Assembly (NCBI RefSeq): GCF_026212465.1
Contig: NC_080050.1
Location: 29,360,070-29,424,069 of the forward strand
From: Amaranthus tricolor
Taxonomy: Eukaryota > Streptophyta > Magnoliopsida > Caryophyllales > Amaranthaceae
DNA: 64,000 nucleotides
Direction of reading: 5' to 3'
Made by a program: the position numbers and the translations under genes. Position 1 is the first letter of the stretch; every line of letters begins with the position of its first letter. The notes below the pieces were generated by a model. That model had not been told where the DNA came from and did not search any database. It worked only from the letters and a program-made list of their open reading frames with translations. This document shows, piece after piece, positions 28,148-46,439 of the stretch.

Positions 28148-31100
28148 CAGCCACGCCATACTCGCCGTCGATCACTCGAGGTACTTCTTCTCTCTCCTCC
28201 TCTTTAATGGAGCTCAATTTTGTTTTTTTAAAATTATGCGGGTAATTAACAAAACCATTGAGAAATTTCCTAATAAAATAGAGTGAAAAAATAAATTTAA
28301 TAAAAAAAAGGGAAAATTTGATGATGATATTGAAAAACTGTAGAGAAATGAAGAAAGAAGTACAAGTGGTAGTGAAACTGGTAATTGTATGAGTTGGGCT
28401 GAATTATGTTGTTTGGGTTGCACCTGCCTGCAGCTGTTATGGCCTAGGGTCGTTCTTCGAAAATGGCTTAATATTTCTACTAAGGATTCTGATTTCAGTG
28501 CTGATACTGATAATGATGACTTCACTGATGATGAAAATGACAATAACAGCAATTTTGATGCTCAAACTTTTGTTGATTCTGATGTTGATGCTCAAGGTAT
28601 TTTTTACTCCCTCCTCTATTTCTATTTGTGTTTTTGGAAGGGTTATTTGATCTTGTAGATTTCATCAAATTCAATAAATATAGAAGTGGGTTTGTTTTGA
28701 TTGTATATGATATGATCACTTATGATGCATTGATTGCAAGTCAAACACTGATTCTCTGGGGTTAATTTCTTATATTTATATGCATTTAACTGATTTTTTT
28801 CTGATTATGAATTTATACTAAATGGGTATTTTTGTTTTTAAGATGAGGTGAATATTGTCTTACATTATGTGGATTTTGATTAATTGGAGCATATTTGCTC
28901 CATTTTTTGCATAAGACTCTATAGGATCAATTGGCTGTTCTCGCCCTAATCTCCATAAGTGTCATCGTAACTGAATATCTAAGACAGATATGCCAACACT
29001 TTTTCCATTTTTTCGCTATTATCCATGGTAGGTTTTCTAAAGTTAGCCTCCCTAATATAAGGTTCAAGTTGTCTTGAAGGCATTTTTGGAATAAGGATGA
29101 TACTTATTGGCAAATGCATCTAAATGGAAAACGATATAAAAATGTGATGTTCCTTAGTTGTGTTTTCTGATGTTGTTGATATACTGGGTTTTCGGACTGA
29201 GGGAGTATACTTCAAGGAACTTTCCCTATGATTACTAGCCCTAGTGTTTCAAGGTGTAAAATATGTCTAACAAGGGCACACGGTAAATAGGAGATTCTGG
29301 TGAACAAATAGGAAACATAATCATATTTAGTTCATTATGATTGCATCATACGGCTAAGTTACGGATCTGGTCTCGACAATGGATGCAAATCGCTTTCGTG
29401 GTCTATGGGGATGGTTTTGTAGTTGTCGCTGCCTAAATTGCAGTTGCGATAAACAAGTGTAACATGATTCGTCAGTTAATTCACTTTTTGAATTCGTGAT
29501 TCGCTCAAAATCACCATAAAATAGTCCAACATTGACCATAATTCGCTTTTTTATTCGCGATTCGGAAGTACATTAGTGAATCATGTGACAGTGCGCTAAA
29601 TTCTAACTGTTGCAAATTGCAATACGCTCATGATGGCGTTGATGCAGACTATATTTTGCACTATAGTGTGTTGATCTATTTATTATAACATAACTTTGTA
29701 TGAACTGGTTGTATAAACCTTACCTTGTTATGTTTTTTTTTGATGGTGTAAATGCGTTTCCATTCGTTCCTTTCATATCTTCTCATACTATCTTCTCATA
29801 CATCAGCACCTTTAAATTTCAGACAATCTACCACGATTGAGACGGCGAAACTCTGAAACTTTCAGGGCTCAATACATTCATAGAAAGGAAATCAAGTATG
29901 TGATTCATCTTGGATAACTCAACCAACAGTTCCTTTTTCTGAGCATCGTTTGTTAAAATCTTTCTTTTTGGCTTGTAGAGTATGTGTTGGGACATGGAAC
30001 GTCGGTGGAAAACTTCCACCTGATGATCTGGATATTGAGGAATGGATAAACGTCAATGACCCTGCTGACATCTATGTACTCGGGTAATTTCTGCAGTGTA
30101 GCTTTTAAGCGTAAACCTATCAGTTCTCAATTTTCTTTTTCTCATTGTATACTAACGGCCTGTTTGTTAAGTGGTAATGAACGGTGGTAATGAGAATGAA
30201 AACTAGTGTAACTTTGGTTGAGAAATCTCTTGGCTACCTTGATAACCGTGCTTGTCCAACTTAATCATCTCATCTTCTTCATAAAATTTATTCCAATGCA
30301 TTAACATTAGAAGATGTGGTATTCGGTGCTAATGGAAATTTGTAAACAAAATCATCACCATGGGAATGAAATGAACTTTTGATGAAATTGTACACTATAA
30401 ATCATTCCCATTACCACCATTTAGTACCACTAACCAAATGACCCGTAACGTGCCTAGTAATTTGGCTTGCCTCCTTGATTTAATAGTGTCTTGTACATCT
30501 TTCTCAACACGTTCTTAAAATTCGTTCAAGAACATTATGATCATTACTCTTGGCTTGCTGTTTTATATTATCCCGGATTAATCATCTATTTCAATCTGCT
30601 ATTGATTTCAAAAGTATTTTTTGATAAACAGTCTCCAGGAAATTGTTCCACTGAATGCTGGAAATATATTTGGGGCAGAAGACAATCGACCAGTCTTACA
30701 ATGGGAAAATATCATACGAGACGCACTTTGTAGAGTGCCAGCTAAAAAGAGCTACAAAAGCTACAGCGATCCCCCTTCTCCGTCAAAGTTCAAGCCTAAA
30801 GAAGATGATCCTGACTTAGAGGATGAGTTATCACTTGATTCTGATAGTGGAGGGGAAGAGGAAGTGTATCCTTTGGACGAGGAGCCTGCTGGATTTTATG
30901 AAGTTAAGGACAAAATGGTCTGCAATGAGGGAATATATAAGGACCATGAAGTTTTAAATAGTGACGAGATTCCATATTCAGCTTTTCAAGGAGAAAAAGG
31001 GTTTTTGAAACGGATCTCTTCTCAAAAGAGGTTGGAAAGATGGCATAGCTTCCAGTCAAATATTCAGAAAGTAGGTGATGAATCTGTGACCAAGCCGGTG

Positions 31101-34100
31101 TCTTCAAAGTTAAATAGAACTCTAAGTGGAACCGAAAGGATTGGTTTGAGCTGGCCTGAGCCACCCTTAGATTTGCTAGCTCAACGAGTTTTGGAGAGAC
31201 CGACTTGTTTTAAGTCAGCAAAATCTTTTAAGATGTCCAAATCTTTTAAGGCATACAATTCTTTCAAGATTACTGGTGACCGCAGGGCATTGTCAGATGC
31301 TTCAGTACTTGCAGAACTTGATCTTGAATCACTCATACAGCGGAGAAGAAGACCAGAGTATGTGAGGATAGCAAGTAAGCAAATGGTTGGAATTTTTCTT
31401 ACAATATGGGTTCGTAAGGGCTTGCGCAAACGCATTCAGAATCTTAAGGTGTCTACTGTTGGTGTTGGTGTTATGGGCTATATCGGTAACAAGGTCTGTC
31501 TCCTTTCTTTTCTTATTCCTTCTTGGTGCTTTGAACCTCATATAATTATCTTATATTCCTTAGGTTATGCTATAGGAAGTGTCGTCCTGTCATTGGAAAT
31601 GTCTAACGGTACTTATTCTTAACTGTGTGCGGCTTCCATGTGAGGTCGGACCTGAAACTATGGCGATTTGCTTTCCTTTAAGAATTTCGGGACTATATTC
31701 TGCTTATAGCTATCTTTGCACGTAAAACTCTATTGATTGTTAAAAAAGGGACCTTTAACTTATTTCACTATCTTTATGTTAGTGTAAATAGAAGTGTAAA
31801 TCAGCTACTCTTTCTGAATAATAATTTTGAATCTTCTGGACGTTACCTTCCCTCTCCCCCAAATTCCAGGGAGCAGTTTCTATCAGCATGTCTATATACC
31901 AGACCCTTTTCTGCTTCATCTGTACTCATCTAACATCTGGGGAAAAGGAATGTGACCAGCTAAAACGAAATGCTGATGTAAATGAAATACACAAGAGGAC
32001 TTTTTTTCGCTCTGATTCAGGTCTGGGAGTTCCGAAAAGCATTTATGACCATGAGTAAGTTGTATTATTCGCATTTCTTGACTTAAATTTTCAGAAAATG
32101 GGATTTTCTTTCTTCAATAGTTCCACGCTTCCATATTGATGCACACACATCGAGATCTGTGCATTGCTGTTAAAATTTTTTTGGTGGCGCTGATAGATGG
32201 GATTTGTTTTTTGTGTTACAGAAGAATAATTTGGCTGGGTGATTTGAACTATCGAATCAACCTGTCATATGAAGAGACACGGAAGCTAATATCCCAAAAG
32301 AAGTTGTCTAAATTGGTTGAGTTTGATCAGGTATCAGCTTATATTAAATACTATTTACCCTTCTTATCCCTAGCATGTTGCAAAAACTTCTGTCATGATA
32401 TGTAGGTATGTCTACATTGTATAGTTTATCCTTCATGTGATTGTCCCACGTTTGTAATCATCACGCAATGTAAAGTGGAAATGCAATACATGTTTCACAT
32501 TATGATCTAAAGGAACAATGATGTAATTCCTGATGTTGTTTATCTTACTTGTCTTGAGTTACTATTGTGTCAAAAGGTGGTCCGTTTTACTGTCAAATGT
32601 ATTTTTATGGAGACACTTGCAACTGCAGCTTGTGAGAGAGTTGAGAAAAGGCCGTGTGTTTGATGGATGGTCCGAAGGTAGATTAAATTTTCCTCCGACC
32701 TACAAGTATGAGATGAATTCCGATACTTATTATGGAGAGGATCCAAAAGTCGGGAGGCGTACTCCAGCATGGTAAGCAATTGACTTCCCTACAAATAATT
32801 GGTGCCTCTAATTTCTGGCTGATTTTTTTCATTTTCTTTTCTTTTCTTCCTCGCCTCACCTTTTTGACTGAACATCCATTTCCTCCCTTTTTTCCTTCTG
32901 TTGACGTTGCCTTGTTCCACTTTTTTGACTGAACATCTGTAAAATAGTTGAGTCAGACACTTGAACAATACCTGCCTTTGACACAACTACCCTGGTGTGA
33001 GATCTTTACTACAAGTATTATTACGCATAGAGGTGTTTAATGGGCTGGACCCCCATTTTGAGTCCTTATCCAGCCCATTTTTAGAAGGGCTTTATAAGAA
33101 CGGGGCTGAAAAAGGGTTTTACTATAATTAAAATGAAGCGGACTATAAAAGAACTCAATAAGAGTCAAAAACGGGCCTTTTCAAATAGTGTAATTACTTT
33201 ATAATTTAAATATTATAAATGACAATGTCAATTGGAATTATTAATATTTTTTCAAATTAATTAATATAAATGATTATTTAATTGTTATAAATTGATAAAT
33301 GGGAATAAAATTTATTTTCATTAATGAAAATGGGCCGGGTTGGGCCAGAAAGCCTGGGCCAATTAAATCCCCTATTATGATTAAAGGGCCCTTATCCAAT
33401 TCGGCCCATATTTAATTGAACCCTGCTTCCCATTGAAGACCCCTAAGTCACTTTATTTAGCCCTATCTTTGATACTAATATACAATTAAAAACATTTATT
33501 CCAATGATCAACCCCTTATATTCTCCAACTCCATTCATTATTTGTACACTGTCGTACAATAAAATACATCCGAAATGTTTTAATGTCTTACTTGGTTTAT
33601 GTAATGTCCATTTCCGATAGAGCCAAAGGTTTATTTGGTTTTCGATTATGATGAACTCGAGTAAAATGACTCATTTAAGTTTATACAACTCTTATTTAAG
33701 TGAAATTGCAAATGATGTTTTGTAATCTATGATCATTGAAATAACCGGTAAAGTTGTGTATATCCAGCCTCCTCCTATGTCGATCTGGTAGAACCCAGCA
33801 CTGAAATACTGTAATGTTGTTGTGCACAAGGTTAAGACAACTATCTCACAAGTTGGGTCGACCCACCTATATATATAATATCATATAAAAATAAATAAAA
33901 CAAAAAATGGTAAAAAAAATTTCGTAACCAATTCCTATAATTATTCGACCCGGCCCTGCCTTGCCAACCCTTCACACCAAGGACCGTTAATAGCCCAACC
34001 CATTATTGACTCGATCTGTAAATGACACGTTAAAAATTTGACCCGACCTTGAACCGTTGGGTTGACCTGCCCCGTTAAACACCTCTACTCACAACAGAAA

Positions 34101-34607
34101 ATTCTCGGTGCATTACCTTCTATACATCTGATTTGATTCCAGCCCTTGCAATTTTCCCTCCAACCGGAAAAGGGTCTTCCCTGTTGCTAGACGCCATTAT
34201 CTTAGGATAGAATAGTTTCATAGTAGGTTATTGAATGCTGATGCTCTTCCTTTCAGGTGTGACCGCATTCTCTCATATGGAAAAGGATTGAAGCTTATCA
34301 ACTACAGAAGATCTGAACTCAAGTTGTCTGATCATCGACCTGTTACTGCGATATATGATGTTGAAGTCGAGGTTTTCTCTCCTAGAAAGTTACAGCGAGC
34401 ACTTACATTTACAGACGCAGAAGTGGAAAACGAAGAGATTGTGATCGACAACAGAATGAATGCGGCATTGAGCCAATTGAGACTGGAAGAGGCAAGTAAC
34501 ATTTCTGTGGTTCGATTTTTCATACCGTCTTAACTCTCAAGTCTCAATTCCCGATATTTTACTCTTGTTATGTTCAGATGCAGGACATGGCTAAATGGGG
34601 CCGCTAA
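28145..34607 (+). CDS. Type I inositol polyphosphate 5-phosphatase (CVP2/5PTase-like)
   Basis: Ten exons (28145-28180, 28434-28596, 29823-29895, 29979-30083, 30632-31493, 31870-32054, 32222-32330, 32629-32771, 34257-34491, 34578-34607) give about 646 residues, typical of plant type I 5PTases. The enzyme removes the 5-phosphate from inositol phosphates and phosphoinositides. The start is a basic leader plus LLWPRVVLRKWLNIS and an acidic stretch. The catalytic core begins at KVCVGTWNVGGKLPPDDLDI and continues LQEIVPLNAGNIFGAEDNRP; a long charged, Ser/Lys-rich insert fills exon 5. Motif I (IIWLGDLNYR, about residues 477-486) and motif II (PAWCDRILSYG, from about 557) are both intact. The last intron appears to use a GC donor (GAG|GCAAGT), leading to MAKWGR and a stop; if unspliced, the frame would end at 34533 instead. 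The final acceptor (34578 or 34584) is also ambiguous. Confidence 0.9.
30154..30450. mobile_element. TIR element (MITE) in IP5P intron 4
   Basis: Left end GGCCTGTTTGTTAAGTGGTA, then ATGAACGGTGGTAATGAGAA. The right end, reverse-complemented, gives GGGTCATTTGGTTAGTGGTA followed by AATGGTGGTAATGGGAA. The inverted repeats are about 40 bp, and TAACG stands outside both ends as a possible target duplication. No coding capacity. Confidence 0.6.
33028..34087. repeat. Element with AGAGGTGTTTAA termini in IP5P intron 8
   Basis: The left edge TAGAGGTGTTTAATGGGC is mirrored by CCCGTTAAACACCTCTA at 34071-34087. The ends are rich in GGGC/GCCC words (GGCTGGACCCCC, GGCCGGGTTGGGCC, GACCCGACC). An internal symmetry near 33031-33450 suggests two nested or adjacent copies. 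It occupies most of the 1.49-kb intron between the PAW|CDR halves of catalytic motif II. Confidence 0.5.
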
Positions 34608-35711: not shown

Positions 35712-38700
35712 TTATGATGCGATTCCTGTTAATGAACAAAGGTTTTTAATGATGGAATCAATAACAGCATGAGAACCAGCAGTGGCTGCAAACGGCAAAT
35801 GCTTGGGTGCTTCCGATCTATCAAAGTAAAATCCACCGGAGACTAATTTCTGTTTCGGTTGTAAAGCCAACCATATTATCGTATCAGCACCTTCTTCCCA
35901 CGTTCGTAATTTCCCAGCAAGCCTAGCAGATAACAAGAGTATTAGTAAGTCAATCTATCAGCCGGAAATTCGATAAGTCAGACCTAATGATCCAGCATCT
36001 TAGCATCAAACTGCCTTTTGATAGAGGGAATTGCAGCAAATTTGGCCCAGATCTGAATGGATAGCATAGAAATAGTTCATCCTCACAACCATCAGGTTTC
36101 AACATAACCATCTCATCTCGAGTTTATGTGTATAAAGACGTACATAACGTACATATTTTTATCAAGGTAAGGTGAATCCTTCCAGTAGGTGGCGAGAATC
36201 CAGGTTTTGGTTCCTCGTTTTTTAAGGGTAGCCGCTGGGCAAGTCCAAAGCATTCCACGGTATATTTCAACAGTGGATGATGTGTTTAATTTACGTTTTT
36301 TTCATAAATCATGACTATATTCGAAGATTCAAGCTTTACTACAAGAATTATTCTGTACTATTTGTATTCTGCTATGTATATCATGTGCTACTATTTGTGT
36401 CTACAGAAGTACTACCAGGTACGGGCTTCTACGACTCTTCTATATTACTATTCGCAGTCAGTTGACCTTAAGATAAGCTTCGCATTTAGAGAGTCGATCA
36501 ATGATCAGGTCCGAGTCAGGCGGGAACTAAATATTCGTACAAGTACAAAAACAACAAACTACTCAAACCGAAGATGGTACCGGAAAAAGAGATCAAGGTA
36601 ACATTAGTTCGGTTACAGTGTCACACCACTCTTGATTATAAACCATTTAATTAAAGAACAACTGAATACCAAGAAAGAAAAAAACCCAAGAAAGTTTAGC
36701 TTACCTTTCAGAAAATCCAGGCAAACTTTTTGCAACTCCTGGCGTCTCGGACCAACCAGGATGCATTGCATAGAATCCAATTTCCTTATCTTTGTATATT
36801 TCGGCCCATCTTTCAGTTAATGCGACCTAGGACAGACGAATGAAGTATGTATCAATGTCCTAATCTTATGTGACCGAGCCACAAGTTACGGAGAAAATTC
36901 CAAGCCTATCTGAATACGACCTGATTGACTCATAATTTTCTATATATCTTGATTCTTTATTATAACTATCAATCTCAAAGCACCCAGAAGAGGACAATGA
37001 CATTCATTTACATAAAGTAGCACCTTGAGCTACAAATACAAAAAAGTGATCAAAGTCGGATGTATATTAAATGACCTGAACTCGCTTGTTTCGAGCGTAC
37101 TGCATCACCCCGTTAAAGTCTTTGTCACTGAACTTCATTACAAAGAAACTGTCACAAACTATAATAGGTTCAAATTTAAACAAATGAATCTGGTTGTCTT
37201 AAAGATCACTCACCTGTAAATCTTCGGTCAAAGGAGCAGAGTACATCCCACCTGAAGAAACTGTAATAACCCGTGCATCAGGTGCAGCCTTTTCTAATAG
37301 AGGCAACATCGTCTCTGTCAAAACATAAGTTCCCAATACGTTTACCGCAAAATTCAGTTCGAAGCTGGAACAAATTTTTAAAAATGCATCTGTTAAGAGA
37401 TGAAATGATCTGTACAGATTAGAATGACATCAGGTAACCATAAGATTTACCCTTCAGAAGTTACGACACGATTATTCTCGATAATGCCAGCGTTGTTGAC
37501 CTACAGAGGTAAGCAGATCAGACACCTAACTTTCAGTCGGGTAATACAAGTTAAAAATGAACGTTACAGGAAAATAGTATAAACTCTAGATGATGCAACA
37601 AAAGGAAAATCGCATAAACACAAGGTTACCAAAACATGAAGAGGCACATCCTTTGAAGAAAACCTTGCAGCGAACGACTTGATTTCACTCACAGAAGAGA
37701 GATCACATACCTATGTGTGTAATATAGAAGACAAAGGCAATTAGCAGAATAAACTACGGTTGTGCACTTCACAAATTAAAAAGTCCGCAGAGGAAACATA
37801 AAGAGAACAATCTATTTGAAAGAAGTTAATCTATTGGCTCTAGACTACCCCGAAAACTCGTCTTTGAAGATGATTCATACCTCCAAGTAAACATTCTGGT
37901 TTCCAGTTTTAGTTTGGATTTTAGAAAGAGCGGTTTCTCCCCTCTCTTTACTGCGGCACAACAAGTACACTGATGCCCCTCTGTAGACAATCATCATCAT
38001 CATCATCATTGACTCAACATCATGCTCGAAAACATGGTCCGGGTGAGGGAAGGTAACTGACAATCTATACTCGTATCCCCTCCAAAGAGAGGACTAGAGG
38101 AATATGGTCAAATTTACCCCCTCTGTAGACAATGGAAGATATATATTAGCCCAAAAGAGTTGTTAGTTTCCATTGAGTAATGCTAAGTGTTGAAAGCATA
38201 GACAATACCTTGATGCAAGGTCCTCAGCAGTTGCAAACCCAATCCCAGAATTTGCCCCAGTAACAATACAATTCTTTCCATCCATTCTTGCTTGCATATC
38301 TTCAGCTTTAAAGTTCTTAGAGTGTTCCCTAAATGAGAAATGGAGTTCTATTACTCGATGGAGAAATCATTCCAACAAAACAAAAATTAAAATGCAACTT
38401 TTTGGATAATCAAAAAGTTATATTTACGGCATCTGAATTCTGAACTAAAGGAACTTGATCCTACTTTGGTCCCTTTTGTTGAATTTAAGGGGAAGAACAA
38501 TCAGAGACCGCGCAACAGAGTCATTCAGAGTCATCAACCCAGTATACCGCACAACAAATGCTGTTAAAAGTTGCTTAAGTTATGAGGGTATTTGTATTCA
38601 AGCATTGTGCACTTTCTATGCTGGTGTATACCTTTCTGTAATCTGATCGAAATCTTAACAAATCAATTTTCACCGTTTGTTGGCTTATTTAGGAAAATCT

Positions 38701-41700
38701 TTTCCGGTGTGGAATGAAACTCCTACTGCTTCGTCATCTTCCAGGTCGTATTCTAACAACTATTAGATTAGGCCATTTATTACATTGTCCATACAAATGT
38801 CACTCAGAAGTAAATAATGAGGTCCAAATGAATGTCTACTAACAAGTGAATAAGATATATGATGGGAATTGAGATCAATCGATAATTTTACTACCATGGA
38901 TCAAAACAGTCGTGTATATAATTCCTCACTTGTCCCAGAATTTCAAATATAAGATCATTCCCTCATATAATGACAATATTTATCTCCCTTGTGTCTCCCT
39001 TCTTCCACTCAATAGTCTTGATAGTACACCATTTGAACTATACAAGTAGTTCTATTAATATATTGGAAAATATTGAGGAACCCTTGCACAAACCCTTTCA
39101 CTCTAGAATCACTAATTCAACTTACTTTAACTTACAAACTACCAAGGGCGTGATTTCAATTTTTTAAATGTCACCACATACATGCACCCAATGAGAATAG
39201 TGTAAACCAACTCGCGAAATAGTTGAAGCCTTGTGATATGTTATATACTATATCACGTCACCTCACACAAGAGCTCTTTTAGCTAGAAATATAGATACAA
39301 CAAATGCATTTTTCATGGTTGGGGTTAAAAATTCCACATAAAATGAGGGATGAATGAGATTCAAACTCATAACTTCCCGTCATGTTAGCTTGTGAGTTTT
39401 GATAAATCTCAAGAAAGCAGCTCAACGAAACACTAAAATTGATATTAAAACCCCATAATATGCTATATAATCTACAAAATAGATTCCTTGACGGAGGTAA
39501 CCAACATCAGTATATTGTACCACCCAAGCCACCAATTATAAAGACATATCAAAGAAGGGGCAAAAGTGGAGAGTAGGTGATATGTTAGTCGCGTAAGCTG
39601 GCAAAAATATTTAGAAATAAATCTTTTCGGTTGTTTTTTTGTTATCTTTTATTTTCTTGTGTTTGCTCTTTTGGGCTTTTGTATCTTAGGCTTGGGGTCT
39701 AAAAATAGGGACTCCTTATCATTGTAAAGGGTTGTATTGTCTTTTGAATAAGAAAATTCAGAAACAAAGGAGTTTACACAACACTCGAAGTTGTATGGGA
39801 GTTTGCGCAGCACTCAAAGCTGTGTGTTCATTCTTTTGTGTATCTTTTTTGTTCTCTTGTGTGTGTGTTTGGAGATTACATAACTGGGTGTGTTACATAG
39901 GTATCAAAGCGATTCAATTTTCTTTCCCAAAGGAAATAATGGAAACTTCTAGTACTCAAGAAAGGATGGTTTGTTTGGAACAAGAATTGGAGAAATTGAA
40001 AGAGGTTTCGGCCACCGTGGAGCAGATTGCCAAGAAACAAGACAAAACTTATTAAGTCTTGGCTAAACTGATGGAAGCGCAAGCCAAGTTATTAGAGATG
40101 GGCACCCATTATAATAATAATCTGAGAAAACAGACCCAAAACAGAAATATGGGGTATGATGGACAGAATTTGGAATGGATTTGTCAAAATGAAAGTGGTT
40201 CACGGCATTCCCAAAACAAAGAACGAAATCAAGAAAGATTGAATTGGAAGGCAAAGAGGCTGGAATTACCGCCATTTAATGTTCAAGATCCTGATGAATG
40301 AATATTGAAAGCAAAAAAGTACTTTACCTTTTACCAACTCAATGAAAAAGAAGAGGTAGAATCGTCAGTAGTGAGTTTCGAAGGGGAAGCAATGATGTGG
40401 TACCGGTGGATGAATCAAAGAACGTCATTAAAACGATGGGAAGACTTAAAGATGCTGATCTTGGAACATTTTCATTCCGGTGAGGATGGAGATCTCTACA
40501 ACCAATGGATGTCGGTGGAGCAAACAGGAACTGTGGCTGAATATCGAAAGGAGTTTGTGACGAGGCTGACTTAATTGGATCCAGTAGATCAACCGGTGAT
40601 GCTCGGTGCTTTTTTGAGAGGATTACGGGATGAAGTCAAGGCTGAGCTTCGAATCTTGGGGCCGAAAAATTTGGGACAGGCCATGGCGTGGTCAGATAAA
40701 ATTGATAAGAAATTAGCAGGTACTTGGTTGCGCAATTACCCTTTTGCCCCTCAAAAATATCAGAATCCAATGATATACCCAAATAACCCTCCACCCCCAA
40801 ATTACCTGTCAAAACCCAAAATACCCTAACCCTGAATCCAAGGCGCAGAATCCATAAAATCCAGCAAGAAGCCGTTATCCACCAGTGAATTCAGGTACGG
40901 GGCGAGCCGGCGGCAAGGAAAGACGGCTTTCAGATCAAGAATATCGGAAAAAAGAGCCAAAGGGTTGTGTTTTCAATGTGATGAAAAATGGTCCCTTAAT
41001 CATGTTTGTAGTAAAAAGGAGATCAGTGTATTGATTGGCACTATGGAGGACGACGAAGCAAAGGGTGAAGAATTACATATTGAAGAAATTATAGAGGAGG
41101 AAGAGCTGGAGGTAATTAACAGCTCCTTGAATTCTGTGGTGGGAATTACGAATCCCAAGACTATGAAGTTACTGGGAAAAATTGGGGAACATGAATTAAT
41201 TGTGATGATTGATCTGAGGGCAACCAACAACTTTACTTCGAATCAGGCGGTACAGACCTTGGGAATTAAGTGTGAAGAGTGTGATAAATTTGGGGTCAGA
41301 CTCGGCAATGGGGAAGAAATCTTGGGCAAAGGTGTGTGTAGGCAGGGGACACAGATGATGCAATTCACATGGCAAGGGCAGAAAATAATTTTGATAGGAG
41401 ATCCGTCATTGAAGCGTTCGAAGATTTCCTTGAAAGTCATGCTTAAGGTGTTACGCAAGAAAAGTGGAGGCATTCTAGTAGAGTTTAACGGGATCGAAAA
41501 CTGCATCAAGGGAGCTACTGTACCTGCTGAATTACAGGAATTATTCGACTCATACTCAGACATTTTTCAATCCCAAACTCCAATTACCCCCACATAGGAC
41601 CCAAGATCATGTAATCACCCTCAAGGAGGGAACCAATCCCATAAACGTCCGTCCCTATCGGTATCCGCATAGTCAAAAGAACGAGATCGAGAGGTTGGTC

Positions 41701-44700
41701 CATAACATGCTCAAAGCTGGAATCATACTACCCTCAATTAGCCCATTCTCTAGTCTAGTCATCTTGGTCAAAAAGAGACGGATCTTGGCGATTTTGCATG
41801 GACTATAGGGCCTTGAATAAGGCGAAAGTTCCGAATAAATATCCCATTCTGATGATCGATGAGTTACTTGATGAGTTAAATGAAGCAACGGTGTTCACCA
41901 AACTGGATCTTAAATCGGGGTACCATCAGATTAGAATGAAGGCGCAAGATGTTCATAAAACTGCGTTTAGGACTCATGTGGGTCACTATGAGTTTCTCGT
42001 TATGCCCTTCGGTTAAACGAATGCCCCGTCGATATTTCAAGCTCTAATGAGTGAAATCTTCCGACCTTGTCTTAGGAAATTTGTATTGGTTTTCTTTGAT
42101 GATAGTCTGATATATAGCAAAGAAAAATCAAAGCATCGACGTCATGTGGAACAAGTGTTTCAATGCCTAAGGAAGAATGAGTAGGTGGTAAATGGCGGAA
42201 AATGTGAATTTGGAGTGGATCGAGTTGCTTATCTGGGACATATATTATCTGCAAAAGACGTATCGGTGGATGAAGAAAAAATAGCGGTAATGCAATCTTG
42301 GCGATCACCAAAAAATCTTTAAGAATAGAGGGGATTCTTAGGACTTACGGGGTACTACCGAAGGTTTGTGAAAGGGTATGCCCAACTAACAAGAGTTCTC
42401 ACTAATCAACTCAAGAAAGACGCGTTCGCATAGAATATGGAAGCCGAGCATGTTTAACATCTCAAGACCATCATGAACACGGTACCAGTTCTAGCTATGT
42501 CAAATTATCAAAAATGTTTTGTAGTTGAGACTGATGCATCCCAACATGGGTTAGGGGCCGTTTTGATGCAAGAAAAACATCCGATTGCATACTATAGCAA
42601 GACTTTGGGGATCCGAGCTAGTAACAAACCAATTTATGAGAAAGAACTCATGGCCATTGTGTTTGCTGTTTTGAAGTGGAAGCACTACTTGCTTGGGAGG
42701 CACTTCGTGGTGAGAACCGACCAAAGGAGTTTGCGGCATTTTTTGGTGCAAAGGGAGGTCAATGGGGACTACCAAAAATGGATGATGAAATTAATGGGAT
42801 TCGACTTCACCATTGAATATAACCCGGGAAATAAAAATACAGTGGTAGATGCATTATCAAGAGTATCTCAAGGAGCAATAGAATTGGGAGCTTTGTTGAG
42901 TTCCAATGGCATAAACTAGAAATTGTTGCAAGGTGAAGTAAAGAAAGATGCTGCTTTGGTTCGGATTAGAGAGGCTGTCAACAAAAGGGGAGCACGTCCC
43001 TACTGGTTTCACTTTAAATAACGATAGGCTGCTTTACAAGGGCAGGTACGTATTGGCTCGCTCTTCTCCTTTCATTCCAGTTTTGCTTCATGAATATCAT
43101 GATTCTCCTTTGGGCGGTCACGCGGGGGAATTGAAGACATATCTCCAGTTGGCAGCCGAATAGTTTTGGGAGGGCATGAGACGGCAGGTCACTAATTATG
43201 TCAGGGGCTGTTCCGTGTGCCAAAAAGCCAAGGCTTCAACTCAAAGTCCGGCTACCCATTCCGGCTCATGTTTGGGAACATGTCACTATGGATTTCATTG
43301 AGGGACTACCTAAGTCAGAGGGGGTTGATACTATCTTAGTGGTGGCTGATCGGCTGACCAAGTACGGACATTTTATTGCTCTCAAGCACCCCTATACGGC
43401 TCTTAGCGTGGCAGCCTAAGTTCGTGAAGAAGTGGTACGACTACATAGTTTTCCTACTTCAATTGTGTCCGATAGAGACAAGGTCTTAATGAGTATCTTT
43501 TGGAGACAAATGTTTCGGCTACAACAAACGCAATTACTTCGAAGCAGGCCTTCCATCCACAAACCGACGGCCAAACTGAAATTGTGAACAAAGTTGTGGA
43601 GAAATACCTTTGTTGCTTCGCCAATGAACAACCAAAGAAATGGGCAAAGCGGCTCCATTGGGCTGAGTTTAGTTACAATACCTCGCCACACCTTTCCATC
43701 AAAATGGCACCCTTTCAAGCTCTATATGGGAAGGTGTCACCACAAGTAGCCCGGATCAGCCATCAACAAACAGCAGTAGACTCACTGGAGCATTTGTTAC
43801 AAGAGCGAGACGCGATGTAGGAGGAATTACAATTTAATAAAGGCACAACAACAGATGAAACTGTATGCTGATAAAAAAAGAAGAGAAATGTCATATGAAG
43901 AAGGGGAGTGGGTGTACCTTAAGGTACGGCCATATCGTCAGAAGACCTTGGCTAACCGAATAAACGAGAAGTTGGGTTTACGCTTCTATGGTCCATATAA
44001 AATCTTACAGAAGTTAGGCCAAGCAGCTTACAAGCTAGACTTACCCAAAGACTGCCAAATACACCCGGTCTTTCGTGTCTCTCAACTAAAAAAAGCAGAA
44101 GGTGTGGGAAATTTGAACAATATGGCTGCTGCTCCACCATTGACAGCAGACTTGGAAATCTTGATGACTCCAGCAGATATTCTTCAAGTGCGGCAGCAAG
44201 GGTCTAAACCAAGAGAAGTGTTGGTTCTATGGAAAGGAATAGATGAATCTGAAGCTACTTGGGAGGATGCCGCAAAATTCTTCGCTACCTTTCCAGATAC
44301 ACACCTAGAGGACAAGGTGCTTAATTGGGTCGGGGGTATTGTAACACCCAAGCCACCAATTATAAAGACATATCAGAGAAGGGGCAAAAGTGGAGAGTAG
44401 GTGATATGTAAGTCACGTGAGCTGGCGAAAAAATTTAGAAATAAATATTTTCGGTTGTTTTTTTTGTTATCTTTTATTTTCTTGTGTTTGCTATTTTGGG
44501 CTTTTGTATCTTAGGCTCGGGGTCTATAAATAGGGACTCCTTATCATTGTAAAGGGTTGTCTTGTATTTTGAATAAGAAAATTCAGAAATAAAGGAGTTT
44601 ACAGAACACTCGAAGTTGTGTGGGAGTTTGTGCACCACTCAAAGCTGTGTGTTTATTCTTTTGTGTATCTTTTTTGTTCTCTTGTGTGTGTATTTGGAGA

Positions 44701-46211
44701 TTACGTAACTGGGTGTGTTACATATATATATGCACACTAATATTATACAAACAGGTATATATGACTTCAAAGAAAAAAAGGTAATTGGAAAGTGTTGGGA
44801 TCATCCTCAATATCATAAGATATCTACCCTAAAACTGAATAAGGCTACAGGAAGTTGCACTTGTGTATCATATTCTAGATATTAAGGATTGTTTGCTTTA
44901 ATATCCATGTCGCAAACCCTTTAGGCTTTGGCTTTGTTTTGCATGTCTTATGCAAATTAAGTTCATATAAGTTTAGATAAGGAACAATAAGTTCAAGTTA
45001 AGCATGCTTGGCGAACAATAATTTTAGGATGGGTTCCTGGTAAGTGGTAAGTTCTCAATATGCGCACGAGTTAAGATAAAGTGTGTCAAGAAAAGAGTTA
45101 TGTTGGTTTGTGAGGCTAGTCTACAACTCTCATGAGTAGTGTGATAGTGTTGCCAACTCGGATGAGGCCAAGCTAATCAGTTTAAATACAGTCTAATAAG
45201 TCTAGATAAGGATCAATAAGGTGTATCTCTCATATGTTTGAGTTAATAACTTCAACTCAGGTCATATAGCCGTACACTACATTTGGATAAGAATTTAGAC
45301 GAGAAAGGAAAGGAAAGGAAAGGAAAGGAAGGGGAGGGAAGGAAACTAAGCAAATATCTCTTGTTTATTTAGGAAAGAATGCAAATGAGAGGAAGAGAAA
45401 TATCATTTTCCTTCTGAATCTTTTAAATTTAGTTACCAAATCATTCCCCTCCAAAACTAGCATCCAAACAAAAAAATTATACACCTTCGAATCCCTCCAA
45501 CTTCTTTCTCTTTCCTTCCCAACAAACCCTTAAATTCATATACACTCAAATAAGCCATATCCAACAGCATTCATCTTAAGTTCAGCATAAAGCAATCAAA
45601 AAATTATCCAGTGCAATTCTTCTCTATAAATAACTGGTTCAGGACAGTTGACATTTACAGAAGAAAATAAAATGTAGGGTAAGGATTACATCTCCTTAGG
45701 ATACCCCATATCCTTATCCAAATCCCAAAATAACATATTCCTCAATTTAATCACTGCCCTTCTTCATGATTACATTCACCACCAGTCCACAACAGTTCAT
45801 TATGACTATCGAATAAACACAGAATGGCACAATTCTTTGTTATCACAAAGTAAGGTTGCGTACATCTAAATTCCGACCCAATAACATTAGGGAAATGAAT
45901 TAAAAATCAAACTCCAACAAAACCCAACTCATTCTAAATACCTATTTATTAATCAACAACAATAACAACATTCCATTACCCCATTGCAAATTAGTGGGTC
46001 CCACTAAGTTACGGTTTGGAGTAAGATGTCGTAATTTTAGCCTTGATAACAAAAACATAGAAATCGCTTCCGATTGACCTAGGGTTAGTTAAAATTGAAA
46101 GTAGGACTTACAAGAACCCAGCTTTAGTGAAATTGAGGTACCCATAAACGCCAAATGCAACCGTTCTCCATGCCTTATAAGAAATTGACGAAGGATTAGT
46201 GTAAGTTTGAG
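35712..46211 (-). CDS. DHRS12-like short-chain dehydrogenase/reductase
   Basis: Nine exons on the minus strand: 46211-46112, 38328-38209, 37980-37881, 37710-37630, 37500-37451, 37364-37214, 37132-37076, 36826-36705 and 35922-35712, all joined in frame. The product is an NAD(P)-dependent SDR of the plant DHRS12-like group, substrate unknown. Exon 1 gives [20 protein letters not shown], exon 2 the Rossmann glycine motif TGANSGIG, exon 5 the NNAG motif, exon 6 the catalytic-Ser strand ([13 protein letters not shown]), exon 7 YARNK, the catalytic YxxxK, and exon 8 [11 protein letters not shown]. The C-terminus [20 protein letters not shown] followed by [11 protein letters not shown] is diagnostic. 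Intron 1 is 7.8 kb because of a Ty3 element and a TRIM. Exon 3's acceptor is duplicated by a LINE insertion. No in-frame ATG lies in exon 1; the nearest in-frame one is at 46439 if an upstream exon ends at 46271, so the true start is unresolved. Confidence 0.87.
37976..38133 (-). mobile_element. RTE LINE 3' tail with 16-bp target duplication at a splice acceptor
   Basis: CCCCTCTGTAGACAAT occurs at 37976-37991 and again at 38118-38133. Between them, read on the minus strand, lie 126 bases that resemble the 3' end of the LINE at 20.1 kb: GATACGAGTATAG, a CTTCCCTC segment, CGAGCATGATGTTGAGT and an (ATG)n tail adjoining the second copy. This is a heavily 5'-truncated LINE. The duplicated target contains the AG acceptor and the first six bases of dehydrogenase exon 3, so two copies of the splice site now exist. 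Confidence 0.85.
38329..39199. other. DHRS12-like intron 1, exon-proximal part
   Basis: Ordinary AT-rich intron sequence between exon 2 and the TRIM. No recognisable coding or repeat structure. Short ORFs here are not conserved-looking. Confidence 0.5.
39200..39474 (-). mobile_element. TRIM-like element in DHRS12-like intron 1
   Basis: Read on the minus strand, a ~65-bp LTR-like unit (39474 to about 39411) contains ATATAGCATATTATGGGG and TGAGCTGCTTTCTTGA. It is followed by a TTTATCAAAACTCAC primer-site-like stretch, a short body with GAATCTCATTCATCCCTC and TTTTATGTGGAATTT, and a second LTR-like unit (about 39262-39200) with AGTATATAACATATCAC and CTTCAACTAT. The same order of blocks occurs at 57923-58181. 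It ends 37 bp from the chromovirus target duplication. Confidence 0.6.
39516..39897 (+). repeat. 5' LTR of the chromovirus
   Basis: Begins TGTACCACCC and ends GGGTGTGTTACA. TAAAAATAGGG at about 39701 corresponds to TATAAATAGGG in the 3' LTR, so the TATA box has been lost by one change in this copy. AATAAG (39747) lies downstream as a likely polyadenylation signal. Confidence 0.92.
39898..39913 (+). promoter_or_regulatory. Primer-binding site, initiator-tRNA-Met type
   Basis: TAGGTATCAAAGCGA follows the 5' LTR directly. It resembles TGGTATCAGAGC, the usual plant retrotransposon site complementary to initiator tRNA-Met, with a few changes. Confidence 0.7.
39939..41020 (+). pseudogene. Chromovirus gag region (disrupted)
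   Basis: The ATG at 39939 opens a coiled-coil-like N-terminus ([12 protein letters not shown]), then the gag core around 40240-40720 with [12 protein letters not shown] and [18 protein letters not shown] zinc knuckle of the CFQC...H.C form occurs at about 40964-41005. Stops interrupt the frame at about 40053, 40299, 40572 and 40827. The protein would have packaged the element's RNA; it cannot be made from this copy. Confidence 0.85.
41021..44400 (+). pseudogene. Chromovirus pol region: protease, RT, RNase H, integrase, chromodomain (disrupted)
   Basis: A protease-like segment at about 41165-41300 has its catalytic D-S-G core altered (IDLRATNNF). The reverse transcriptase begins near 41640, with [15 protein letters not shown] and the polymerase FFDD box at about 42095. 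RNase H ([15 protein letters not shown]) starts near 42530. The integrase shows [10 protein letters not shown] with a CSVC zinc-finger end (to ~43225), MDFIEGLP, a VSDRD and a [11 protein letters not shown] site. A C-terminal chromodomain ([15 protein letters not shown]) is at about 44225-44265. Stops lie at, among others, 41596, 42014, 42181, 42319, 42434, 43161, 43417 and 43818, and the frame shifts near 43500. Non-functional. Confidence 0.88.
44340..44722 (+). repeat. 3' LTR of the chromovirus
   Basis: Begins TGTAACACCC and ends GGGTGTGTTACA. A G-rich polypurine-like tract (GGGTCGGGGGT) precedes it at 44327-44338. This copy keeps an intact TATAAATAGGG box, so it could still act as a promoter reading toward 45 kb, antisense to the host gene. 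Confidence 0.92.
44728..46111. other. DHRS12-like intron 1, promoter-proximal part
   Basis: No gene. It contains an (AAAGG)n purine tract at about 45303-45345 inside a possible inverted-repeat element: TTTGGATAAGAA near 45288 with GGAAAGGAAA, against CTTTCTCTTTCCTTCC near 45508. The same style of element recurs at 61.1-61.3 kb. A pyrimidine-rich 5' part adjoins exon 1. Confidence 0.45.
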
Positions 46212-46439
46212 CTATAAGAGAAAAAATATGAGTAAATATGAATGAATCAATTGAAAAGAATAAAGGGTACCTTGATGAGAAACATGATGCAATCTGTGAG
46301 AGAAATATGAGATTGGATTTGAATTTTGATCATTGATAGAATTTTCATAACGTATATGATCATCAACTTCTACATTCGACCAAGTGAAACAGAGAAAATT
46401 TGGCTTCAGAAAGAGCCACGTATATACAATATCCACCAC

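What the first reader, a model, noticed from the sequence alone, without database searches (positions are those of the whole stretch)
37976..38133. LINE insertion duplicated a 3' splice site in the DHRS12-like gene
The 16-bp target duplication CCCCTCTGTAGACAAT includes the acceptor AG and the first six exon bases of dehydrogenase exon 3. After insertion of the ~126-bp LINE tail, two identical acceptors flank the element. Using the downstream one keeps the frame, although its upstream context is now an (ATG)n tail instead of the original pyrimidine-bearing intron. Using the upstream (original-context) one would exonise the LINE and soon meet an in-frame TAG. This is a natural splice-site-choice experiment and a possible source of unproductive transcripts.
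Basis: partly seen in the sequence, partly recalled or inferred. Interest (0 to 1): 0.75.

Follow-up and report, generated by a model that had tools for sequence, protein, structure and literature searches.

The report
LINE insertion duplicating a splice acceptor
In an amaranth gene, a short piece of a jumping element landed exactly on the end of an intron and copied the splicing signal, so the cell now has two identical signals to choose from; only one gives a normal protein, and which one is used has not been measured.

Summary
In a minus-strand DHRS12-like gene of an amaranth (probably Amaranthus tricolor), identical 16-bp copies (37976-37991, 38118-38133) flank a 126-bp insert. The insert belongs to a dispersed family (40 hits reported in this genome, itself included; a lower bound) with (ATG)n tails, 5' truncations and, at 12 of 30 fetched loci, 12-18 bp target duplications beside the tail. 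Longer copies reach coding remnants that I recognise, from recall, as an RTE-type LINE; Pfam gave no match. The duplication holds 11 intron and 5 (not 6) exon bases. Splicing to the downstream copy (37980) gives the normal protein; splicing to the upstream copy (38122) adds 142 nt and a TAG. The upstream copy keeps CTAAT 24 nt before it and is the first AG after it. The downstream copy has the lowest pyrimidine fraction of 16 acceptors compared (its uridine fraction is within range) and five TGAT motifs from the tail. The gene is intact and shows no excess of residue changes over A. hypochondriacus, so productive splicing probably persists, perhaps with wasted transcripts. No RNA evidence was available. 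The kind is known (dog merle SINE): a neat, ordinary example.

The parts
38118..38133 (-). Upstream (original-context) copy of the target duplication ATTGTCTACAG|AGGGG; acceptor with first exon base 38122
   Evidence: identical to 37976-37991; CTAAT at -24 and pyrimidine run of 6
37992..38117 (-). 5'-truncated LINE 3' end, 126 bp, sense to the gene, starting GTAAAT and ending in the (ATG)n tail
   Evidence: family hits in own genome; copies aligned; exact length
37990..38009 (-). (ATG)n tail, 6.7 perfect units as called by TRF (its last two bases overlap the downstream copy); reads as repeated TGAT just upstream of the downstream acceptor
   Evidence: TRF; motif positions -14 to -26
37976..37991 (-). 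Downstream copy of the target duplication; acceptor with first exon base 37980
38134..38208 (-). Rest of the original intron 3, holding CTAAT and TCTTCC; the intron is 86 nt to the upstream acceptor and 228 nt to the downstream one
38209..38328 (-). Exon 3 (EHSKNF...LASR), donor GTATTG
37881..37980 (-). Exon 4 (GASVYLLC...VYLE)
38065..38067 (-). In-frame TAG met if the upstream acceptor is used; six introns lie downstream of exon 4 in the model
   Evidence: position counted; exons
38116..38117 (-). GT of a donor-like GTAAAT directly after the upstream copy (possible nested 137-nt intron leaving a 5-nt microexon)
35712..46285 (-). DHRS12-like gene, coding exons 46285-46271, 46173-46112, 38328-38209, 37980-37881, 37710-37630, 37500-37451, 37364-37214, 37132-37076, 36826-36705, 35922-35712 (my model; the start codon could lie further upstream)
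   Evidence: 98% identity over 100% of the query to an A. hypochondriacus protein

Best explanation
Shown from sequence: a 5'-truncated copy of a LINE-like family inserted across the intron 3/exon 4 boundary of a DHRS12-like gene and left a 12-16 bp target duplication holding the whole 3' splice-site core, so two identical acceptors 142 nt apart now flank the element. Inferred: it got there by target-primed reverse transcription; the gene stays functional because enough transcripts skip the first acceptor and splice to the second, with branch formation at TGAT motifs supplied by the AG-free (ATG)n tail. A fraction splices to the first acceptor, includes the LINE piece, meets TAG and is probably destroyed by nonsense-mediated decay.
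For: Identical flanking copies; 0 such repeats in each of 20 simulations. Dispersed family with the same tail. Target duplications of 12-18 bp beside the tail at 12 of 30 fetched loci including the window's own, judged by eye from a best-repeat scan. Intact coding frame through the downstream acceptor. Of 8 residue differences from A. hypochondriacus in 322, 3 look derived in the window, 3 in A. hypochondriacus and 2 are unclear, judged against four close outgroups. The downstream acceptor has TGAT at -14, -17, -20, -23 and -26 inside a 32-nt AG-free stretch, and its uridine fraction (0.37) lies within the reference range 0.30-0.59. Intron-retained ORFs P0124 and P0125 imply orthologous introns of about 126 and 93 nt without a LINE-coded stretch.
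Against: No transcript data. The downstream acceptor has the lowest pyrimidine fraction (0.41; the 14 reference acceptors span 0.52-0.78) and shortest pyrimidine run (3; references 4-15) of 16, and no CTRAY motif at -14 to -60 (7 of 14 references have one). The upstream acceptor is the first AG after CTAAT, and the scanning model in PMC1431707 (passages read; mammalian) favours the first AG. If the insertion is recent, coding integrity says little about present splicing. Whether A. hypochondriacus carries the insertion is unknown, so the residue comparison is weak. In the duplication scan 18 of the 29 other loci had no convincing pair beside the tail, and exact pairs of up to 13 bp (L014) and 17 bp (L026) turned up away from it. 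No reverse transcriptase domain was reached.
Confidence: 0.66

Rival explanations
1. The upstream acceptor is the main site: the original branch point CTAAT commits splicing to the first AG, most transcripts carry the LINE piece and a premature stop, and this allele is a hypomorph or an early pseudogene.
For: CTAAT at -24, UCUUCC tract and a 60-nt AG-free zone at the upstream site; low pyrimidine context downstream. Scanning model passages in PMC1431707.
Against: All ten modelled coding exons are open and flanked by GT/AG, and residue changes are not in excess on the window side. A search for the 84-aa truncated product gave 7 hits, none with the LINE-coded end; this is weak, because such transcripts may not be held.
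Confidence: 0.27
2. Nested-intron (introner-like) splicing: the upstream acceptor is used first, then GTAAAT at 38117 pairs with the downstream acceptor, leaving a 5-nt AGGGG microexon and a frameshift.
For: GTAAAT lies directly after the upstream copy and the downstream copy supplies CAG; the 137-nt interval is GT-AG.
Against: The donor lacks G at +5, a 5-nt exon is very short, and the product is out of frame.
Confidence: 0.03
3. The two copies arose by chance or by another local duplication, not by retrotransposition.
For: Four other high-complexity local repeats exist in the window.
Against: The interval between the copies is a dispersed repeat with a family-typical tail ending at the downstream copy.
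Confidence: 0.02

Closest known systems
Canine merle SINE in PMEL (PMC7349775, passages read)
   Same: A retroposon inserted at an intron/exon boundary; a 15-bp target duplication contains the original acceptor; the tail is a microsatellite next to the splicing signals.
   Different: There the SINE is antisense, its tail gives poly(T), and the competing cryptic acceptor lies inside the SINE. Here the LINE piece is sense, the tail is (ATG)n, and the two competing acceptors are the duplication copies themselves. The merle splice outcome and phenotype are described in that paper; here they are unknown.
Introners that recruit splice sites from target duplications (PMC9860276, passages read)
   Same: A target duplication supplies a splice site so that the insert can be removed.
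   Different: Introners create new introns in exons; here an existing intron is lengthened and no intron is gained.
TRIM insertion near the start of exon 2 of AUX/IAA16 in Bassia scoparia (PMC12277486, passages read)
   Same: Transposable element near an exon start in a plant (same family, from recall), changing splicing, with target duplications.
   Different: An LTR-type TRIM with a measured altered transcript; in the passages I read the splice site itself was not said to be duplicated.

Membership tests
LINE (non-LTR retrotransposon) insertion | Dispersed copies sharing the 3' end with variable 5' truncation | tested here: met
   matches start at different query positions and seven loci (L010, L011, L015, L016, L019, L020, L022) share roughly 200-720 bp more upstream sequence
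LINE (non-LTR retrotransposon) insertion | Variable-length target duplications beside a 3' tail | tested here: met
   16 bp here; 12-18 bp, with 0-1 mismatch, at 11 of the 29 other loci by a best-repeat scan read by eye; 18 without a convincing pair beside the tail; no null run
LINE (non-LTR retrotransposon) insertion | Reverse-transcriptase coding region in longer copies | tested here: inconclusive
   two of four extended loci (L031, L032) clearly have ORF pieces upstream of the shared 3' end that I recognise from recall as an RTE ORF C-terminus; Pfam had no significant match to the two pieces tested; no RT domain was reached
RTE clade | Short tandem-repeat 3' end instead of poly(A) (recalled) | tested here: met
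   (ATG)n tail in the window copy and in most of the 28 copies aligned
RTE clade | RT phylogeny places it in RTE | not tested
   no RT sequence obtained; plant LINEs fall in the L1 or RTE clade (PMC11288735, passages)
SINE sharing a LINE 3' end | tRNA/7SL/5S-derived head | not tested
   the window copy is truncated inside the shared 3' end, so it alone cannot tell
DHRS12-like SDR | High identity to named DHRS12 proteins over the full length | tested here: met
   98% to an A. hypochondriacus protein (unnamed product), 84% over 99% of the query to Chenopodium quinoa DHRS12
Introner | New intron created inside an exon | tested here: not met
   an intron already lies at this position in orthologous ORFs P0124 and P0125

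The most novel reading that the evidence does not exclude
The LINE's (ATG)n tail acts as a replacement branch-site array: five evenly spaced TGAT motifs in an AG-free stretch let the duplicated acceptor work without a pyrimidine tract. Tail length, a slippage-prone microsatellite, then sets the ratio of productive to unproductive transcripts, making the locus a tunable expression control that varies between amaranth lines.
Probability: 0.15. Interest if true: 0.62.

Novelty: new member of a known kind. Interest (0 to 1): 0.36.

Why it matters
Two identical acceptor cores in one intron, differing in upstream context, form a natural test of what branch-site and pyrimidine context contribute in a plant. 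It would also show how an insertion at a splice site can be tolerated because the target duplication regenerates the site. Outside that it is one allele of one gene.

Tried and rejected
Chance origin of the repeat was rejected. A search for the truncated isoform (84 aa, exons plus LINE-coded end) returned 7 hits: none carries the LINE end, and several read on into the intron. A search for an ORF reading from the LINE tail into exon 4 found no candidates. Neither negative says much about expression. The within-genome search for a gene paralogue without the insertion did not complete. A DNA search with 541 bases around the site returned itself plus 39 hits confined to the LINE part and no gene paralogue, but the list was full at 40. 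Dating was inconclusive: 17 of 131 columns differ from the majority state of 27 other copies, 4 of them states seen in no other copy (of the 30 loci, L009 and L014 were left out as near duplicates of L008 and L023). Pfam gave nothing significant for the two LINE ORF pieces tested. Eight literature searches showed part of what they found (rows listed of papers held: 20 of 353, 15 of 48, 2 of 2, 12 of 41, 6 of 454, 8 of 564, 5 of 5, 12 of 371). No listed title or displayed abstract describes this locus; I did not search by gene name, so this is no claim that it is unpublished.

Full report
What is there. The 16-mers at 37976-37991 and 38118-38133 are identical and enclose 126 bp. Complex exact 16-bp repeats within 300 bp occur at 5 places in the window, this one included, and in none of 20 simulated windows. 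The gene lies on the minus strand. Its ten modelled coding exons give an open frame of 322 residues from the MFLIK start, 98% identical to an Amaranthus hypochondriacus protein and 84% to Chenopodium quinoa DHRS12. Exon assignments are mine, from frame, GT-AG sites and homologues, not from transcripts. The genome has 519.85 Mb in 45 contigs, with a contig of 45.4 Mb. The published A. tricolor assembly has 520 Mb, 17 chromosomes and a longest of 45 Mb (PMC9847342, passages). A. tricolor is therefore the likely source; this is an inference.

The insert. The own-genome search scored 40 of 219 candidates and listed 40 hits including the window itself; the other 39 are 77-86% identical. Most copies share a sequence from about GGGGTAAAAT to an (ATG)n tail. 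Seven loci share roughly 200-720 bp more upstream. In two of four loci extended to 8 kb, ORF pieces upstream look, from recall, like the C-terminus of an RTE-type LINE ORF. Pfam gave no significant match to the two pieces tested, and no reverse transcriptase domain was reached, so the clade name is provisional and even the name LINE rests on anatomy plus recall. A best-repeat scan of 30 loci, read by eye, gave target duplications of 12-18 bp beside the tail at 12 (the window, L003, L006, L007, L012, L013, L017, L019, L027, L028, L029, L030); all but the window, L007 and L030 have one mismatch. The other 18 had no convincing pair beside the tail; some had exact pairs elsewhere (13 bp in L014, 17 bp in L026), so short pairs alone prove little, and no null was run. 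L013 and L027 are truncated within a few bases of the same GGGGTAAAAT point as the window copy. Because that GGGG also belongs to the family, 4 bp of the 16 may be junction microhomology.

Consequences for splicing. The duplication holds 11 intron bases and 5 exon bases. From donor 38208, the intron is 86 nt to the upstream acceptor and 228 nt to the downstream one. Downstream use gives the normal protein. Upstream use adds 142 nt (1 modulo 3) and reads GGKFDHIPLVLSLEGIRV then TAG; six introns lie downstream of exon 4 in the model, so decay of such transcripts is likely by the usual rule (recalled). I compared both sites with 14 acceptors of this gene and the neighbouring 5-phosphatase gene (assigned by me). 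The upstream site is ordinary: pyrimidine fraction 0.59, CTAAT at -24, 60 nt without AG. The downstream site has the lowest pyrimidine fraction (0.41; references 0.52-0.78), the shortest run (3; references 4-15) and no CTRAY, though 7 of the 14 references also lack CTRAY. Its uridine fraction (0.37) lies within the reference range (0.30-0.59), and it has TGAT at -14, -17, -20, -23 and -26 inside a 32-nt AG-free stretch. Scanning from the original branch point would meet the upstream AG first (model described in PMC1431707, passages; mammalian work).

Orthologues and constraint. Two ORFs that read through the orthologous intron, P0124 (exon sequence matching Beta vulgaris P0003) and P0125, imply introns of about 126 and 93 nt with no LINE-coded stretch. 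P0123, whose exon 3 residues equal the window's, stops before the insertion point. Of the 8 residue differences between the window and A. hypochondriacus, 3 look derived on each side and 2 are unclear against four close outgroups. The gene shows no sign of decay, which favours continued productive splicing. It is not known whether A. hypochondriacus shares the insertion, nor how old it is.

What I could not do. There is no RNA evidence. The search for a truncated product found none (7 hits, none with the LINE end), and the tail-to-exon ORF search had no candidates. The own-genome paralogue search stayed unanswered, and no other plant DNA could be read.

Comparison. The closest documented case that I found is the dog merle SINE, which sits at an intron/exon boundary with a 15-bp target duplication containing the acceptor, and whose tail length shifts splicing (PMC7349775, passages). 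Introners show target duplications supplying splice sites for new introns (PMC9860276, passages). The present case is a new member of a known kind: a sense LINE piece with an (ATG)n tail between two identical acceptors. Its most novel reading, the tail as a tunable branch-site array, is untested.

Noticed in passing
window 39513-44724: Gypsy-like LTR retrotransposon (named from recall) on the + strand inside intron 2 of the DHRS12-like gene (46111-38329, about 7.8 kb); LTRs 94.3% identical over 388 aligned columns.
   Followed up: partly
window 29900-34600: Type I inositol polyphosphate 5-phosphatase-like gene on the + strand, tail to tail with the DHRS12-like gene (named from recall of the family).
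   Followed up: no
window 38116-38117: The LINE fragment begins GTAAAT directly after the upstream copy, so element plus the intron part of the downstream copy is formally a GT-AG intron.
   Followed up: partly
window 37976-38009: The (ATG)n tail is in frame with exon 4, so genomic DNA reads MMMMMMIVYRGASV: a possible internal start for a shortened product.
   Followed up: no
L013 and L027, near 1490-1505: Two other family members are truncated within a few bases of the same GGGGTAAAAT point as the window copy, hinting at a reverse-transcription stop or a microhomology hotspot.
   Followed up: no
L008/L009 and L014/L023: Pairs of loci about 96-97% alike over some 3 kb: segmental copies carrying the element along with its flanks.
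   Followed up: no
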